Made by a program: the position numbers and the translations under genes
The notes under the pieces: model-generated
Database searches by the model: none
Told to the model about the DNA's origin: nothing
Seen by the model: only the letters and a program-made list of their open reading frames with translations
Part shown: positions 3,016 through 62,578 of the stretch, one piece after another
Position numbering within the stretch: position 1 is the stretch's first letter
How the letters are laid out: every line of letters starts with the position of its first letter
Virus record (IMG/VR): IMGVR_UViG_3300027969_000073
Coordinates: 27,084-91,083 of that record
Direction: 5' to 3' (one strand)
Source of the DNA: a virus
DNA length: 64,000 nucleotides

Positions 3016-6000
3016 TTATTCTTTACAATTTTTAGCTTGCCAAATAGCAGTTTGCTGTTCATTTGGTGATAAAGATAAGAAATTTTCTTTATTCATCTTT
3101 CCTCCAGCTGCTGTGTATTCATCGTAATCTTTATTTCCAATTGTTTCAAATATTCCTAGTCTTTGAGATAAAGAAGTATCTACCATACTTGATAAAGCAT
3201 TTGGTTTATTAACAACTGATTTAGTATTTAAATTTTCTTCAGCTAATTTATTTAAACCAATCATAAACTTAATATCATATCCTGCATCTTTGATTGATAA
3301 TTCTGCAATTTTTTGTGGTATTTTATTGTATGAAACTGATCCATCTTTACTAATTGAAATACTGAAATCAGAATATTTAAAATCAATAGAATTAGCATTA
3401 TAAGATATATTTGGTATACCTAATTTATCTAAAACATATTGTTTGTATTCTTCTCTTTTTTGTTCAGATACATTTGACGGATTATAATTATAATCAGCAT
3501 TTACTTTTCCTGTACTAGTAACTCCTTTAATATCTGCTAAATTTTGAGTAACAGGTGCTACAGTAGTAGGAATTGTCTTAGTTTCATCAGGTTCTAATGC
3601 AGCTGCTGTTATTTGGTCCATGAAAGAATCTTGCATACTTTGAATAGGAGATTTAGGAGTTTCTGTTTTGTTTTCTTTTAAACTAGAAACATTAAGGTCT
3701 CTATTGTAGTCAAACTCAATTGCAAAATTACTCTCTCCTAAACTTGTTAATGGTACATAAGTAGCAGTAGTTAAATTAGTTCTTCCATCAAAATCAGCAA
3801 AATCATTTTTAACATCGAAGTCTGTTTTTACTAATTGGTAAATAGTAAATTGCTTACCTTTTTTAGCTACTTTAATAAATTCTACTGGTTGAGAGTTATT
3901 AGTTGTTGGAGTAAGTTGACGATTTTTAGACAAATTAACAATTAAGTTTCCTTTTGCAGTTTTAACTATTCCATTTTTAGATTCTTTAGCAGCTAAAGTT
4001 AAAACAGAATTTTCTTGTTCAGGAGTTAAGCCTTTCTCTAAAGGATTTGTTGTTACATCTACTTTTACAGTATGAGTGAAAGTTTCTTTTCCACCATGAT
4101 TCTGCATAAATTGTCTCTTAAATCTTTTCTTTATTTCCTCGTTTTTATTAATACCTGCAGCTAACGCAGTTTCTAAGAATTTATTAAAGGTTCTTCCATT
4201 AACATCAACAATGTTATTAGCTTCTTGATAAGCATCTGACCAGAATAAAACTGGTACAAGATTAGAAAAAGTAAAAGGCCCAAAGCCGTAACCAGCTGAG
4301 AAGTAAGTGTACTTAACTAATTTAAGTGCCATTTCTCTTACTTTAGGGTCAGAATCTTGTAACATGCGTTCCCAAGATTGTCTAGCATATTGACGGTCTA
4401 GTGTATCTTTTCCTGTTGCGTAGTATTGAATTCTTTTAATAGGAGAATAATCATTACTATCTACTACATATAAAGAATCAAGTAACTTTCTATAAGGAGA
4501 GTTAATAGGAGTTTCTTTTTGCCATTTAACTAATTCATCAGGAAGTTTAGTCAAAATCTCATTACTTTGAGAATGCTTAAAGAATGGGAAAGCAGAAGCT
4601 AAGAAATTGATGTAGTTGATATCAATTAAACTTGCTTCTTTTTCTGTCAAAGAATACATTTCTCCTTTTTGGTCAGAGAATTCATTCTTTAATTCTCCTA
4701 AAGCAGAATATTTTATACGACCTGTAGTACTGTCTACTTTTCCAATTGCAGAATAGATTTTATCGAAAATGTTAATAGGTTCAATAAGACCGTATTTAGT
4801 AAATGCAGGCATCATTATTTGTTCAGAAAAAGGACTTTCTATAAATGCTTCTTCTAATCCTTGAATACTATTAGTATCTTTCTCTATCTTACGAAGTAAA
4901 CGATCTTGTTTATTAATAGTAGTATAGTTATTTGCACTTGCAGGTCCTACTCCTTTAGTATCACTTTTAGAAGCTTGAATACCCATAGCTAACTCTGAAG
5001 CAATGCTGTGGTATGTTTCAAATGCTTGTAGAACATTAAGTTGATTTTGATAATATTCTAATGTACCTGAAGGTAATAAATCTCTTTCTAAAATTTCATT
5101 ACTAAAATCTGTACTTGTGTCTGCTTCTACTTCAACTCCTGCTTCTTTAATTTTATTTGCTAACAAAGTTTTCCATCTACTCATAGTAGTTCTAAAGTTT
5201 TTGTCATCTGACAAAGAACCTTTATCGTTAAAGTAGTTTCGAGTTAACTCTAAAATTACAGGCTGATTTAAGAATGCAAATACAGTTCTTTCTTCTACTC
5301 CTAAACGTTGTAACATACTTTGCACATTGGCAGTATATGTATTCATGTTTAAGAATGATGCTACTGGGTCATTGGCATTATCCACAGCTGCTGCTACGTT
5401 ACTTGCTAAAGCTTTTGAAATACGAGTTCCCGTAGGACTTTTAATTTGATTTAACTCTGTGTAAGGAATTCCATTAAAATAAATAGGAACTTTTAGCTTC
5501 ATATTAGTATACTGAGCTTTAGCATGGTGTACGTTATGATTAGCATAAATACCAATTAACTCTTTACCCGTCATACCTCTACGGAATAACTCTGATTGTG
5601 TAGAAGGATAGTTGATATTAAAGTTATCTCCTTCATCTAAAACACTTGCAGCATCTAATAGTTCACTACCTGTTAAAGTAGCTTCTTTCTTTTTACCTGC
5701 TTGAATCAAACGAATTCTTGCAGCATTTTCTTTTAGAACATCAAAGTTTCCTGGATTTAAAATAGCACTAGCTGTATTTTTGTTTGCCAAAATTCCTTGA
5801 ATAATTTCAATTTTCTTATTGTCTCTTGCAGCAGTACTATTATATTGAACAGCATTGAACTTTTCTGACATTAATTTTTTAGCAATAACGTCTATAACAT
5901 CTTGGTGTTTTTTCTGAATCTCTTGAGAAGTCTCATTGAATGGTAAGTCATTAGAAATTGCTTTATACAAAGTATCAATTTCATCTTGAATAGTTTGTAC

Positions 6001-59375: not shown

Positions 59376-59533
59376 TGCCAGATATATCAATGTGCCAAAA
59401 CACAGCTTGTCCATTAAGAGAAGTATGTTATAGGTTTAAAGCTGTACCTAATGAACGTCAGGCATATGCAAATTTTGAACCTGATGATGATGGAAAATGC
59501 GAGTATTTTATAAAACTAAAAAAAGAAACATGA
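59375..59533 (+). CDS. Small Cys-rich protein (52 aa)
   Basis: The ATG at 59375 overlaps the previous stop (TAATG) and the gene ends TGA at 59531-59533. Sequence: MPDISMCQNTACPLREVCYR, then a middle part, then KCEYF near the end. The spacing CxxxxCPxxxxxC...C with four cysteines looks like a small metal-binding or iron-sulfur-type knuckle that I have seen in small phage proteins. It directly precedes the radical SAM gene (ATGA overlap), so it may work with it. Confidence 0.65.
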   Translation: MPDISMCQNTACPLREVCYRFKAVPNERQAYANFEPDDDGKCEYFIKLKKET

Positions 59534-60417
59534 TAGAAAAAGTAACAAGAAAGACTTTTACTATTAGGGAATCAGGAAGATCTAGTGATTATATTACTCC
59601 TTCATTTGGTTATGGATGCCTGTTAAAGTGTGGTTATTGTTACATGAAAAGACATAAACCTGAAGGTTTAAGTATTGCTAAAAATGTAGGAGATATACTC
59701 ACCAGCATTAATGACCATGCATATTTCTATTCTGATGTAGAAAAGCCTAATCAAACTGATGCAGAATATATCACCTATGATATAGCTTGCAATGAAGATT
59801 TTGCTCTGCATTCTAAGTATTACAATTGGGAATACATCTTTGAGTTCTTTAGAGACCATCCTGTTGCTAAAGCAACATTTGCTACTAAGATTATACCTAT
59901 TAACTTTCTAAGTTTTGACCCTCAGAATAAAGTTAGGATTAGATTTAGTCTTATGCCTCAAAAGATATCTGATGTTTTAGAGCCCAAAACTAGTAAGATT
60001 ATAGACAGAATCAAAGCAATTGATGCATTTATAGATGCTGGATATGATGTGCATGTAAACTTTTCACCTGTAGTAATTTATAAAGGTTGGGAAGAAGACT
60101 ATGAAGAGTTATTTCATATGCTAAATGATTATGTAGACTATAAATCAACAGTAAAAGCTGAAGTTATATTCTTGACTCATAATGAAAAAAAGCATTTGTA
60201 TAACTTAGAAAACAATATTTCTGGAGAAGAATTAATGTGGACACCTAGTATTCAAGAAAGTAAAACTTCTCAATATGGTGGTAAAAATGTAAGATACAGA
60301 TATGACCTTAAAAAAGATTTTATTAGTAATTTTATAAAAATCCACGATGAAATAATTCCTTGGAATACAATTAGGTATTGTTTTACTTTTTTAGTACTTT
60401 TATCTCAAATTATATAA
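59530..60417 (+). CDS. Radical SAM protein, spore-photoproduct-lyase-like
   Basis: I choose the ATG at 59530 because it overlaps the previous stop (ATGA), as other starts here do; a start 33 bases upstream is also in frame. CLLKCGYC (C30, C34, C37) is the CxxxCxxC motif that binds the [4Fe-4S] cluster and S-adenosylmethionine. The following YMKRHKPEG and the overall barrel layout recall spore-photoproduct-lyase-like proteins found in phages. Substrate is unknown; DNA or nucleotide modification or repair is possible. The end is odd: after PWNTIRYCF, where relatives tend to stop, a hydrophobic tail TFLVLLSQII is added. The next gene is a homing-type endonuclease one base away, so the C-terminus may be disturbed by its insertion. 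Confidence 0.8.
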   Translation: MIEKVTRKTFTIRESGRSSDYITPSFGYGCLLKCGYCYMKRHKPEGLSIAKNVGDILTSINDHAYFYSDVEKPNQTDAEYITYDIACNEDFALHSKYYNWEYIFEFFRDHPVAKATFATKIIPINFLSFDPQNKVRIRFSLMPQKISDVLEPKTSKIIDRIKAIDAFIDAGYDVHVNFSPVVIYKGWEEDYEELFHMLNDYVDYKSTVKAEVIFLTHNEKKHLYNLENNISGEELMWTPSIQESKTSQYGGKNVRYRYDLKKDFISNFIKIHDEIIPWNTIRYCFTFLVLLSQII

Positions 60418-60418
60418 T

Positions 60419-61006
60419 ATGGGAACAAAAGAATTAGACATCAAAGGACAGAAATTTAATAAATTAACAGCAATTAAATATGTTGGTAATGAAAAATGGG
60501 AATTTGAATGTGAATGTGGAAAGATTATTATAAAAACAACTAGTGATGTAAAAAGAGGCAAAACAAAATCTTGTTCCAGAATATGTACTACAGGAAATCC
60601 TAGTAAACACCCTTTATACCAAACCTGGGATGGTATTAAAAAAAGATGTTATCAAATTGGAGCAACTGGATATAATAATTATGGAGGCAGAGGTATTAAA
60701 ATGTGTGATGAATGGAAAAATTCATTTTGGACTTTTGTATTTGATATGGGTAATAAGCCTTTTATAGCTTCAACACTTGAAAGAATTGATAATAATTCTG
60801 ATTATTGTAAAGAAAATTGTATTTGGGCAAGTCCTAAAGAACAGGCTTCAAATAGAAGAAATAATATTTATATTACTTATCAAAATAAAATCTATACACT
60901 TTATAGTATTTGTAACCTTTTAAAACTTAAACACAGTACAATTTATTGGAGATTACAAAAAACTAATTTATCTCCTCAAAAATATTTTGAAAAGAATATT
61001 TTTTAA
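60419..61006 (+). CDS. HNH homing-type endonuclease
   Basis: This 195-aa protein matches free-standing or intron-borne phage HNH endonucleases: KFNKLTAIKYVG, a Cys-containing beta part (FECECGKI...KSCS), WDGIKKRCY, NNYGGRGIKMCDEW, LERIDNNSDYCKENCIWASP, and EQASNRRNN. The C-terminus has a helix-turn-helix-like segment (YSICNLLKLKHSTIYWRLQK) for DNA recognition. Such genes are mobile and cut unoccupied alleles to copy themselves. It starts one base after the radical SAM stop and ends just before the structured RNA region at 61011, so it may belong to an intron or may have landed beside the RNA genes. Confidence 0.87.
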   Translation: MGTKELDIKGQKFNKLTAIKYVGNEKWEFECECGKIIIKTTSDVKRGKTKSCSRICTTGNPSKHPLYQTWDGIKKRCYQIGATGYNNYGGRGIKMCDEWKNSFWTFVFDMGNKPFIASTLERIDNNSDYCKENCIWASPKEQASNRRNNIYITYQNKIYTLYSICNLLKLKHSTIYWRLQKTNLSPQKYFEKNIF

Positions 61007-61010
61007 AATA

Positions 61011-61455
61011 TTAACCTGCTGAAGATAGACATGGTGATTTTATACTCTTAGGCAGTATCTAATTGCTTTTATGCACGCCAAGTAACGTGGTAATGTGTAT
61101 TGGACGGTGAGTCTAAATATCTTTCCTCTCTGCAGAGCGACATAAGAAAGAATCTCATTCCACTTGGGGACAGGTTAAAAAATTGTAAGTAGATGACCAT
61201 GAAGCGCAACTAAACAAACTAAAAGTGCCCACGGTAGTACATGGATCAGGCACTTTATCTACTTATATTGTGTTGTTCCCTTGAGAAAGGAGGTATTGAT
61301 AAAAAAGGAAGTTGTTAAAAGTAACAATATGCTTACAACACAGAGGACTTCTCATCCTTAAGACACATAAACTTCAGTTCCCGCACAGCAGTGAGATGGG
61401 CTAAGTTATATACAATTTCTCGGAGCTGGAAGTAGAAAGCTGAAGAATGTGTTTT
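61011..61455 (+). ncRNA. Candidate ornate structured RNA beside tRNA genes
   Basis: There is no gene here. I find four consecutive domains. A: TTAACCTG/CAGGTTAA (61011-61018 with 61171-61178) encloses TAGAC/GTCTA, an ATACT/AGTAT hairpin, CGCCAA/TTGGACG and ATCTTTC/GAAAGAAT. B: an 11-bp helix (61184-61194 with 61257-61267) encloses GACCATG/CATGGATC and AAAGTGCC/GGCACTTT, which interleave as a pseudoknot. C: TGTGTTGT/ACAACACA (61269-61276 with 61335-61342) encloses CCTT-GAGA-AAGG (GNRA loop) and TTGTTA/TAACAA. D: ACACAT...CTTCAG with CTGAAG...ATGTGT (61363-61377 with 61440-61452) and further inner stems. The GNRA loop supports the plus strand. It could be a GOLLD/ROOL-type phage RNA or an intron core; neither is proved. 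Confidence 0.6.
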
Positions 61456-61458
61456 TAT

Positions 61459-61568
61459 AGTCAGGTGGCGGAATGGTAGACGCAACCAATTGAAGGGTCG
61501 GAGATAGTGGGAACCTAGTTGTTCTAGTTGTGAACCCCTCCATACAGGTTCAAATCCTGTCCTGACTA
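61459..61568 (+). tRNA. Class-II tRNA-like element 1, very long variable arm
   Basis: The acceptor stem AGTCAGG/CCTGACT (61459-61465 with 61561-61567) is perfect, the D arm is GCGGAATGGTAGACGC (leucine-type), and the T arm is ACAGG-TTCAAAT-CCTGT. Between D and T arms are 60 bases. That is about 25 more than a normal class-II tRNA, with extra GGAG/CTCC, GGG/CCC and CTAG/CTAG pairings in the variable arm. The anticodon arm pairs best with an 8-base loop (AATTGAAG) and one mismatch, so the anticodon is uncertain (GAA or TGA by the U33 rule). It may be a real unusual tRNA or a tRNA-like domain. Confidence 0.55.
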
Positions 61569-61698
61569 CGCCTTTGCAGTATGGGTAATATAGAAGCTGT
61601 AAGGTCTATGGGGTATTGCCGCCCTCGATAGATAGTGTAGTGGTATGCTACGTTTTAGCTACTCAATGCTAAATGACAGCGTGGAAAGACACGCATAT

Positions 61699-61793
61699 AG
61701 TCAGGTGGCGAAATGGTAGACGCTATCGTTACAAAGGTAGAATGGTAAATAGTTTACGCTCCATTCATATAGGTTCAAGTCCTGTCCTGACTA
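61699..61793 (+). tRNA. Class-II tRNA-like element 2, paralogue of element 1
   Basis: It has the same acceptor stem AGTCAGG/CCTGACT (61699-61705 with 61786-61792) and nearly the same D arm (GCGAAATGGTAGACGC). The T arm is ATAGG-TTCAAGT-CCTGT. The anticodon stem CTATC/GGTAG encloses an 8-base loop (GTTACAAA), so the anticodon could be TAC or ACA. The variable arm is a long hairpin: GAATGG/CCATTC outside and GTAAA/TTTAC inside. Element 1 and this one clearly arose by duplication, with divergence in the anticodon and variable arms. Confidence 0.58.
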
Positions 61794-61884
61794 CGGAGTC
61801 TGAAGTAACAGATACCTTACTCCCATATGGCACTCAGTCCGTTAAGCTGGGGAAACAGGTTGACTGCTAGGAAAGACTAGTGTA

Positions 61885-61950
61885 GGCTATTCCTCTAGTG
61901 GAAAGATACTATTTTATAGTAAACCCATGGTTCGATTCCATGGATAGCCT
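61885..61950 (+). tRNA. tRNA-Lys(UUU)
   Basis: The acceptor stem GGCTATT/GATAGCC (61885-61891 with 61943-61949) has one G-T pair. There is a short D arm TCT/AGA, an anticodon stem TACT/AGTA with 7-base loop ATTTTAT (anticodon TTT at 61913-61915, preceded by the required T), a 4-base variable loop, and a T arm CATGG-TTCGATT-CCATG. CCA is not encoded. The D stem is short (3 bp) and total length is 66 bases. Lysine AAA is frequent in this AT-rich phage, so the tRNA would help late translation. Confidence 0.72.
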
Positions 61951-61976
61951 CTCATGTTTCATGGTGGTTACATGTT

Positions 61977-62009
61977 GGCAGTCGGGAGTGGTTACTCGGC
62001 TGCCTTTTT
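61977..62009 (+). terminator. Intrinsic terminator closing the RNA locus
   Basis: GGCAGTCG pairs with CGGCTGCC and continues with AGT/ACT around a GGTT loop. The stem is followed by TTTTT. It lies 27 bases behind the tRNA-Lys and suggests that the upstream RNAs (61011 onward) are one transcript read on the plus strand. Confidence 0.8.
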
Positions 62010-62024
62010 CTAAAATTAAATCAA

Positions 62025-62123
62025 ATGGTAAGAAGACAGATAGTATCAATACTCATGCTGATGGTGCTTGTAGCATTTCATCTAGCATGCATTAAATTCA
62101 CGTTATGGTTAGTAAGTATTTAA
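62025..62123 (+). CDS. Tiny membrane protein (32 aa)
   Basis: The frame starts MVRRQIVSILMLMVLVAFHL and goes on ACIKFTLWLVSI, then TAA at 62121. It has a basic N-terminus and one hydrophobic helix. It overlaps the start of the glucosaminidase gene (62105) by 19 bases, so the two may be coupled. The position directly before a membrane-anchored muralytic protein suggests a role in lysis or wall remodelling, but there is no direct sign. Confidence 0.48.
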   Translation: MVRRQIVSILMLMVLVAFHLACIKFTLWLVSI

Positions 62124-62578
62124 TTATACCAATAGGTATAGCCTTATTCCTAACGACTAGGCACGAGGTGAGGTATGTAGAACGAGAGGTCTACGTACAG
62201 AAAATTATTCCAAAGACAGAGTTCAGTCCTGACAACCTAATAAAAAAACTCAAGCGAATGAACATCAGGCACTATAAGGTAGCGTACGCCCAGGCCTTAC
62301 TAGAGACCGGTCGGTTTACCTCAAGCATGTTTGCTAGGAACAACAACTTGTTTGGCATGAAGGTGAGCCGTCAGAGGGCTAACACGTGTAGTGGTGAGGT
62401 GATGGGTCATGCCTACTATAGGACGTGGGAGGAGTCGGTGGTTGACTATGCTCTGTACTACAACAAGTACTTGTCTCGGATGAGCGAGGATGAGCTGTAT
62501 AGCTACATGGGCAGGAACTATGCGGAGGACAAAAATTATGTAACTAAATTAAAACAAATAGTATGCGAAGTAAAATAA
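62105..62578 (+). CDS. Membrane-anchored glucosaminidase (157 aa)
   Basis: The first 18 residues form a hydrophobic anchor (LIIPIGIALFLT). The catalytic domain follows: AYAQALLETGRFTSSMF with likely catalytic E67, RNNNLFGMK, a YYRTWEESVVDYALYYNKYL segment and NYAEDKNYVTKLKQIV. This is the Bax/FlgJ glucosaminidase pattern in its minimal form. The anchor would place the enzyme in the periplasm, unlike the GH19 endolysin. It is encoded among early genes, so it may remodel the wall rather than lyse the cell. Codons are much richer in G and C than in the upstream genes, which points to a separate origin. Confidence 0.87.
   Translation: MVSKYLIIPIGIALFLTTRHEVRYVEREVYVQKIIPKTEFSPDNLIKKLKRMNIRHYKVAYAQALLETGRFTSSMFARNNNLFGMKVSRQRANTCSGEVMGHAYYRTWEESVVDYALYYNKYLSRMSEDELYSYMGRNYAEDKNYVTKLKQIVCEVK

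What the first reader, a model, noticed from the sequence alone, without database searches (positions are those of the whole stretch)
61011..62010. About 1 kb of continuously structured RNA with embedded tRNAs and one final terminator
The whole stretch between the HNH gene and the next reading frame can be folded into consecutive closed domains: A to D before the tRNAs, then three tRNA or tRNA-like elements with structured spacers (e.g. GCAGTA/TATTGC at 61576-61619, GGAGT/ACTCC at 61796-61824, CTAG/CTAG at 61868-61881). A strong intrinsic terminator ends it. Large ornate RNAs of unknown function (GOLLD, ROOL) are known in phages beside or around tRNA genes, so this may be a member or a new class. 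Helices are seen directly; the class is inference.
Basis: partly seen in the sequence, partly recalled or inferred. Interest (0 to 1): 0.85.

Follow-up and report, generated by a model that had tools for sequence, protein, structure and literature searches.

The report
Anticodon-less tRNA-like RNA array in phage
A crAss-like phage carries a 1-kb stretch that makes no protein but strings together small folded RNA modules and tRNA look-alikes that have lost the part that reads the genetic code; the same modules are shuffled among many uncultured phages, match no known RNA family, and look as if they could still be loaded with the amino acid leucine.

Summary
Partly confirmed, and more interesting than stated. 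The 61,011-62,010 gap of this crAss-like phage is a non-coding chain ending in a strong intrinsic terminator. It is not GOLLD, ROOL, a group I intron or one ornate RNA, and its folding energy is ordinary; the evidence is comparative. At least four modules recur in other phages in other orders with compensatory changes: a kissing-loop pseudoknot (KE, 61269-61359), a pseudoknotted module (M1, 61360-61455), a GAAAGA hairpin (M7, 61674-61694) and d2 (61185-61266). None is in Rfam 15. Two 'tRNAs' (61459-61568, 61699-61793) belong to a family of >200 distinct elements with fixed acceptor, D and T arms but a hypervariable middle: an anticodon arm is no commoner than chance. They keep the bacterial leucine identity set (A73, A14, A15-U48, G18G19, A20a), which by published work allows leucylation without an anticodon arm. 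ARAGORN finds no ordinary tRNA in the 91-kb contig. Best explanation: a polycistronic array of folded leaders and tRNA-likes that are processed like tRNAs, probably leucylated, and cannot decode; the benefit (decoy, aminoacyl donor or RNA scaffold) is untested. Domain 61013-61176 and the third tRNA-like (61884-61951) remain weak.

The parts
60419..61006 (+). HNH endonuclease ORF (homing type), upstream neighbour
   Evidence: PHROG 374 HNH endonuclease, E 1.3e-53
61013..61176 (+). d1: putative closed domain AACCTG/CAGGTT; unsupported
   Evidence: no homologue in any fetched locus; folding z -0.2
61185..61266 (+). d2 module: long closing stem with inner AAAGTGCC/GGCACTTT stem
   Evidence: found in L084 (88%) and L255 (74%); inner stem compensated three ways (AAAGTGCC, AAAGCGCC, AAAGTTCC) and closing stem varies in step
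61269..61359 (+). KE: kissing-loop element. P1 61269-61276/61335-61342, H1 61277-61291, H2 61343-61359, kiss UGAGAA 61282-61287 with UUCUCA 61349-61354
61360..61455 (+). M1: pseudoknotted module, closing stem ACACAT/ATGTGT, inner stem CTTCAG/CTGAAG, conserved GGGCUAAGU and AGUAGAA
   Evidence: 19-sequence alignment; 99.3% of cells paired, 75 double changes vs 26 shuffled, score 0.537 vs 0.206
61459..61568 (+). TLE1: anticodon-less tRNA-Leu-like element (acceptor AGTCAGG/CCTGACT, D arm, T arm, A73)
   Evidence: Rfam tRNA 40.8 bits with a large insert; no canonical anticodon arm
61576..61619 (+).
   Evidence: present, but no homologue found
61674..61694 (+). M7: TGACA-GCGTG-GAAAGA-CACGC hairpin directly before TLE2
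   Evidence: GAAAGA just upstream of a TLE head has a 5-bp flanking stem in 17/60 cases vs 38/2727 elsewhere, with many different stem sequences
61699..61793 (+). TLE2: anticodon-less tRNA-Leu-like element with variable-arm-like stem GAATGG/CCATTC
   Evidence: Rfam tRNA 36.8 bits; anatomy
61794..61853 (+). spacer module with GGAGT/ACTCC
   Evidence: matches in six loci, best 81% in L142; covariation not tested
   Evidence: same loop and same position before TLE3 as M7 before TLE2; seen directly in sequence
61884..61951 (+). TLE3: weak third tRNA-like element
   Evidence: folding z -3.3; no Rfam hit, no homologue; ARAGORN's 'Pyl' call spans 61862-61951
61977..62009 (+). intrinsic terminator
   Evidence: 10-bp stem, 7 GC pairs, T-run; z -3.9

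Best explanation
The stretch is a non-coding, probably polycistronic unit of a crAss-like phage: folded RNA modules (d2, KE, M1, M7) followed by tRNA-like elements (TLEs), read rightward and ended at about 62,009. The TLEs look like descendants of tRNA-Leu. They keep the acceptor stem, D arm, T arm and A73 but have replaced the anticodon arm by variable, often stem-forming inserts, so they cannot decode. Proposed working: the host's tRNA machinery trims them like tRNAs (RNase P at the 5' end, 3' trimming, CCA addition) and host leucyl-tRNA synthetase, which does not need the anticodon arm, can charge them. The upstream modules act as folded leaders or insulators. Shown here: anatomy, conservation, covariation, lack of an anticodon arm, presence of leucine identity positions. 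Inferred: transcription, processing and charging. Open: the benefit. I think a decoy or competitor for factors that act on the acceptor or elbow of tRNAs is most likely, with an aminoacyl donor or a natural tRNA scaffold for variable RNA payloads as alternatives.
For: KE, M1, M7 and d2 recur in other phages with compensatory changes. TLEs: among 216 distinct ones a full anticodon arm occurs in 3 vs 1.2 expected from shuffles; by acceptor, AGTCAGG 4/220 vs about 300/441 for the rest. Leucine set: A15 with U48 in 82% of TLEs vs 32% of other canonical tRNAs and 100% of canonical Leu; all five scored positions 61% vs 9% vs 100%. U48 and A73, which were not in the search pattern, hold in loci not fetched with the head pattern (61/73 and 68/73). 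Acceptor and T stems keep pairing through double changes. The encoded N73-C74 end is the same as in the phages' canonical tRNAs. Review PMC9976931: E. coli tRNA-Leu variants lacking the anticodon arm and the variable arm remain active; A73 and D/T-loop contacts are needed, and A15-U48, G18G19 and A20a are essential elements. ARAGORN finds no ordinary tRNA in the 91-kb contig.
Against: No expression or biochemical data. The identity positions also occur in some non-Leu tRNAs (all five in 9% of them), and 39% of TLEs lack at least one. The host and its LeuRS are unknown and may differ from E. coli. Many loci were fetched with a pattern containing the D arm, so A14, A15 and A20a are partly selected for. 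KE, M7 or M1 was recognised directly upstream of only 39 of 216 TLEs, so the leader role is not general. G000 may be an incomplete genome.
Confidence: 0.5

Rival explanations
1. Processing punctuation: the TLEs are only RNase P and tRNase landmarks that cut a polycistronic RNA; the middle is free to drift and they are never charged.
For: Acceptor, D and T arms conserved, middle hypervariable; in L074 TLEs lie between reading frames.
Against: Leucine-type A15-U48, A20a and A73 would not be needed; some middles keep loops while their stems are compensated across phages, so those are not free to drift.
Confidence: 0.2
2. Degenerate tRNA-Leu genes and recombination debris: repeats kept alive by homologous recombination between phages, with no present function.
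For: The contig start repeats window 61323-61468 at 99% and then diverges inside the next TLE head, as expected for recombination at the conserved arms; an HNH endonuclease lies next to the array.
Against: Compensatory changes in KE, M1, M7, d2 and the acceptor stem; G000 keeps TLEs although no ordinary tRNA was found in it.
Confidence: 0.15
3. Disrupted tRNA genes: the insert is an intron or bypassed segment whose removal restores an anticodon arm.
For: Large insert between D and T arms, with normal outer arms.
Against: Insert ends vary and no constant exon-side anticodon stem or splice motif was seen; full anticodon arms are at shuffle level; no group I or II match in Rfam.
Confidence: 0.05
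4. A GOLLD- or ROOL-like nanocage RNA too diverged for Rfam.
For: Same neighbourhood (phage tRNA islands; PMC12286853) and kissing loops; the larger flavour-B form (L309, L268) has several further domains.
Against: No GOLLD or ROOL match; modules occur singly and in other orders.
Confidence: 0.07

Closest known systems
tRNA-Leu (Rfam RF00005) and experimentally truncated E. coli tRNA-Leu
   Same: Acceptor, D and T arms, A73, A15-U48, G18G19, A20a; truncated tRNA-Leu without anticodon and variable arms is still leucylated (PMC9976931)
   Different: TLEs are natural, multicopy, share one acceptor sequence across phages and carry long hypervariable inserts; no anticodon arm
GOLLD (phage RNA)
   Same: Large non-coding RNA in phage tRNA islands, sometimes with tRNA inside (PMC12286853)
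   Different: No match to the Rfam model; independent shuffled modules rather than one conserved 3' region
ROOL (phage RNA)
   Same: Phage-encoded, near tRNA islands, pseudoknots (PMC12286853)
   Different: No match to the Rfam model
Theta ribozymes (HDV-like) next to phage tRNAs
   Same: Small structured RNA beside phage tRNAs (PMC10879173)
   Different: KE's helices (P1, H1, kiss, H2) are not, by inspection, the HDV double pseudoknot, and KE lies 5' of a tRNA-like; the theta motif itself was not run
YrlA Y RNA and the tRNA-like domain of tmRNA
   Same: tRNA-like fold that does not decode
   Different: No tmRNA match in the window; 0/216 TLEs carry the Ro60-binding stem signature; a Ro60-like gene in only 6/72 records

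Membership tests
GOLLD | Match to the Rfam GOLLD model | tested here: not met
   Not among cmscan matches at gathering score or at E<=5
GOLLD | Homo-oligomeric RNA nanocage | not testable with these tools
   Needs cryo-EM or native gels
ROOL | Match to the Rfam ROOL model | tested here: not met
   Not among cmscan matches
Group I intron | Match to the Rfam group I model | tested here: not met
   No match at E<=5
Canonical tRNA | Acceptor, D and T arms of tRNA type | tested here: met
   Rfam tRNA 40.8 and 36.8 bits; acceptor and T pairs compensated in the family
Canonical tRNA | Anticodon arm of 5 bp and 7-nt loop with U33 | tested here: not met
   3/216 vs 1.2 by shuffling; neither window element has one
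LeuRS substrates (bacterial tRNA-Leu identity) | A73, A14, A15-U48, G18G19, A20a | tested here: met
   Both window elements carry them by sequence; 61% of the family has all five scored positions vs 9% of other tRNAs
LeuRS substrates (bacterial tRNA-Leu identity) | Charging with leucine | not testable with these tools
   Needs in vitro aminoacylation
tmRNA | tmRNA model match | tested here: not met
   None in the window; real tmRNAs lie beside flavour-B elements in L260 and L226
Y RNA (YrlA) | Ro60-binding stem signature | tested here: not met
   0/216 TLEs
Y RNA (YrlA) | Ro60 (TROVE) partner gene in the same genome | tested here: not met
   None in G000; 6/72 TLE/KE records vs 1/50 control records
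Theta (HDV-like) ribozyme | HDV double-pseudoknot core cutting beside a tRNA | tested here: inconclusive
   No HDV-family match in Rfam; KE topology differs by inspection; the theta motif itself was not run

The most novel reading that the evidence does not exclude
A new class of phage RNA system: arrays of leucylatable, non-decoding tRNA chassis that carry interchangeable RNA payloads in place of the anticodon arm, preceded by swappable pseudoknot leaders, and spread by recombination among uncultured large phages.
Probability: 0.35. Interest if true: 0.95.

Novelty: categorically new. Interest (0 to 1): 0.85.

Why it matters
It adds several covariation-supported RNA families (KE and its larger flavour-B form, M1, M7) that are absent from Rfam 15, and a natural counterpart of the minimal tRNA-Leu made in laboratories. 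It gives a concrete, cheap test (does LeuRS charge a natural tRNA-like without an anticodon arm?) that bears on the open question of why phages carry tRNA genes, including ones that look broken. Standard tRNA finders miss these elements: ARAGORN found neither of the two in the window.

Tried and rejected
Direct BLAST of the 1-kb stretch against 50,697 phage records gave no match; homologues came only from IMG/VR by a protein anchor and by patterns. A 20-base hit in Pseudoalteromonas phage HM1 and one in a Methanoregula MAG lack the P1/H2 context and are taken as chance. ARAGORN's tRNA-Pyl was rejected in favour of the cloverleaf at 61884-61951. Sliding-window folding energy gave no support. 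A second stem (P2) inside KE is only modestly enriched (51 vs 30 expected) and is not claimed. Ro60/Y-RNA link: TROVE genes occur in some of these phages but enrichment is weak (6/72 vs 1/50). Leu/Phe-transferase as a user of charged TLEs: 0/22 records. KE as a ribozyme: most of its conserved letters are explained by helices and the kiss, so not favoured.

Full report
What was checked. The window is G000:27084-91083 of a 91,083-base IMG/VR contig. Its major capsid protein and portal match phiCrAss001 gp32 and gp20, so 'crAss-like' is correct. Between an HNH endonuclease ORF (60419-61006) and a glucosaminidase ORF (62105-62578) there is no gene-like ORF. Rfam reports two tRNA matches (61459-61568, 61699-61793), both with large inserts, and no GOLLD, ROOL or group I match even at E<=5. 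A 10-bp terminator lies at 61977-62004.

Folding alone is no evidence. In 150-nt windows the stretch is not more stable than dinucleotide shuffles (mean z +0.4), and outside sequence scores lower. Delimited domains vary: d1 -0.2, d2 -1.9, KE -1.8, M1 -2.9, TLE1 -0.5, TLE2 -1.9, TLE3 -3.3, terminator -3.9. The case therefore rests on comparison.

Finding relatives. The whole stretch has no match among 50,697 phage records. Loci fetched through the glucosaminidase contained pieces of it in other arrangements. In 84,980 prokaryote species genomes the 19-mer occurs three times: one chance match in what looks like coding sequence, and two flavour-B elements on contigs binned into MAGs, which I take to be phage.

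KE. Consensus: P1 TGTGTTGT/ACAACACA, hairpin H1 with loop UGAGAA, and hairpin H2 just 3' of P1 with loop UUCUCA, the two loops pairing as a kiss. In 46 flavour-A sequences 95.6% of cells pair, with 12 double changes vs 3.1 in shuffles. In 30 flavour-B sequences a 5' hairpin has all six pairs compensated; overall 61 double changes vs 15.5, score 0.309 vs 0.109. The fetching 19-mer pins H1 and most of P1, so these could not be tested freely there. In loci fetched by the tRNA-like head, model R1 finds 24 copies, of which L089 has TGATAA with TTATCA, a compensated kissing pair, and L143 has a compensated H1 stem. A descriptor search gives 26 kissing cases vs 0 in two controls, but only one sequence variant. 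KE is present once or twice in 20 of 22 whole records selected for KE or TLE and in 4 of 47 records not selected for it. In flavour A it often sits just before a tRNA or tRNA-like element. Flavour B is longer; in two loci a tmRNA follows (L260, L226).

M1, M7, d2. M1 (19 sequences) pairs in 99.3% of cells, 75 double changes vs 26 shuffled, score 0.537 vs 0.206, slid controls at most 0.105. A model finds it in 4 of 45 records, twice in G000. M7 is a GAAAGA-loop hairpin right before TLE heads: 17 of 60 such GAAAGA sites have a 5-bp stem vs 38 of 2727 elsewhere (Fisher p 1.5e-16), with many stem sequences. d2 occurs in L084 and L255 with three different versions of its inner stem; three sequences only, so weaker.

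tRNA-like elements. A home-made scan of about 308 loci found 661 tRNA-shaped elements; those with acceptor AGTCAGG (220) almost never have a canonical anticodon arm (4), whereas about 300 of 441 others do. For a set of 216 within one mismatch of that acceptor, a full anticodon arm occurs 3 times vs 1.2 by shuffling. The middle is mostly 20-130 nt and hypervariable. A stem ending two bases before the T arm, where a variable arm ends, is enriched (45% vs 29% with >=5 bp), and some small families share loops while stems are compensated (L120/L181/L182/L238). The acceptor stem changes in compensated fashion. The outer arms carry the bacterial leucine identity set far more often than other tRNAs in the same loci, and U48 and A73, not part of the fetching pattern, hold in independently fetched loci. 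A review reports that E. coli tRNA-Leu variants without anticodon and variable arms remain active, depending on A73 and D/T-loop contacts (PMC9976931). ARAGORN finds no ordinary tRNA in the 91-kb contig, so here the tRNA-likes are not by-products of a tRNA island.

Mobility. The contig start repeats window 61323-61468 at 99% and then continues into a different tRNA-like middle: a recombination-like boundary inside the conserved head. The crAss portal family is found in 17 of 45 KE/TLE records; several without it are 113-362 kb, so the elements are probably not confined to crAss-like phages, although fragments could lack the portal.

Interpretation. The anatomy is well supported (I put it near 0.85); charging by LeuRS is inferred (about 0.4); the benefit is unknown. 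The most economical reading is a tRNA chassis kept for processing, stability and possibly leucylation, with the decoding part replaced. Rivals are punctuation, debris, introns and a diverged nanocage RNA. No paper describing such elements was found with the searches run, but only open-licence papers were searchable.

Noticed in passing
L260, L226, L309, L310, L268, L214 (flavour-B loci): A larger RNA of about 250 nt or more built on KE (P0 hairpin, KE, GUAGUUA/UAACUAC stem, CCCUACUCUUAU/AUAAGAAAGAGGG stem, GUGCUAA end), in two loci near a tmRNA; no Rfam family.
   Followed up: partly
L316 3852-5480; also records G007, G014, G015, G045, G048: TROVE (Ro60-like) genes in large phages with KE or TLEs, in L316 inside a 19-tRNA island; 6/72 records vs 1/50 controls.
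   Followed up: partly
L249 1382-1443: Rfam freshwater-1 RNA (RF02979) beside phage tRNAs and KE.
   Followed up: no
window 59497-60417: Spore photoproduct lyase-like ORF (Pfam SPL, E 1.2e-24) in a phage, just upstream of the HNH gene.
   Followed up: no
L155 (TLE at 5695 on the minus strand), L309, L210, L057, L218: A recurring 'GAAAAAGGGTT...AACCC-GAAAGACC' RNA module that occurs both alone and inside a TLE middle.
   Followed up: no
L002 (G000 1-240): The contig start repeats the M1 module and runs into a degenerate TLE that lacks the usual D and T loops.
   Followed up: partly
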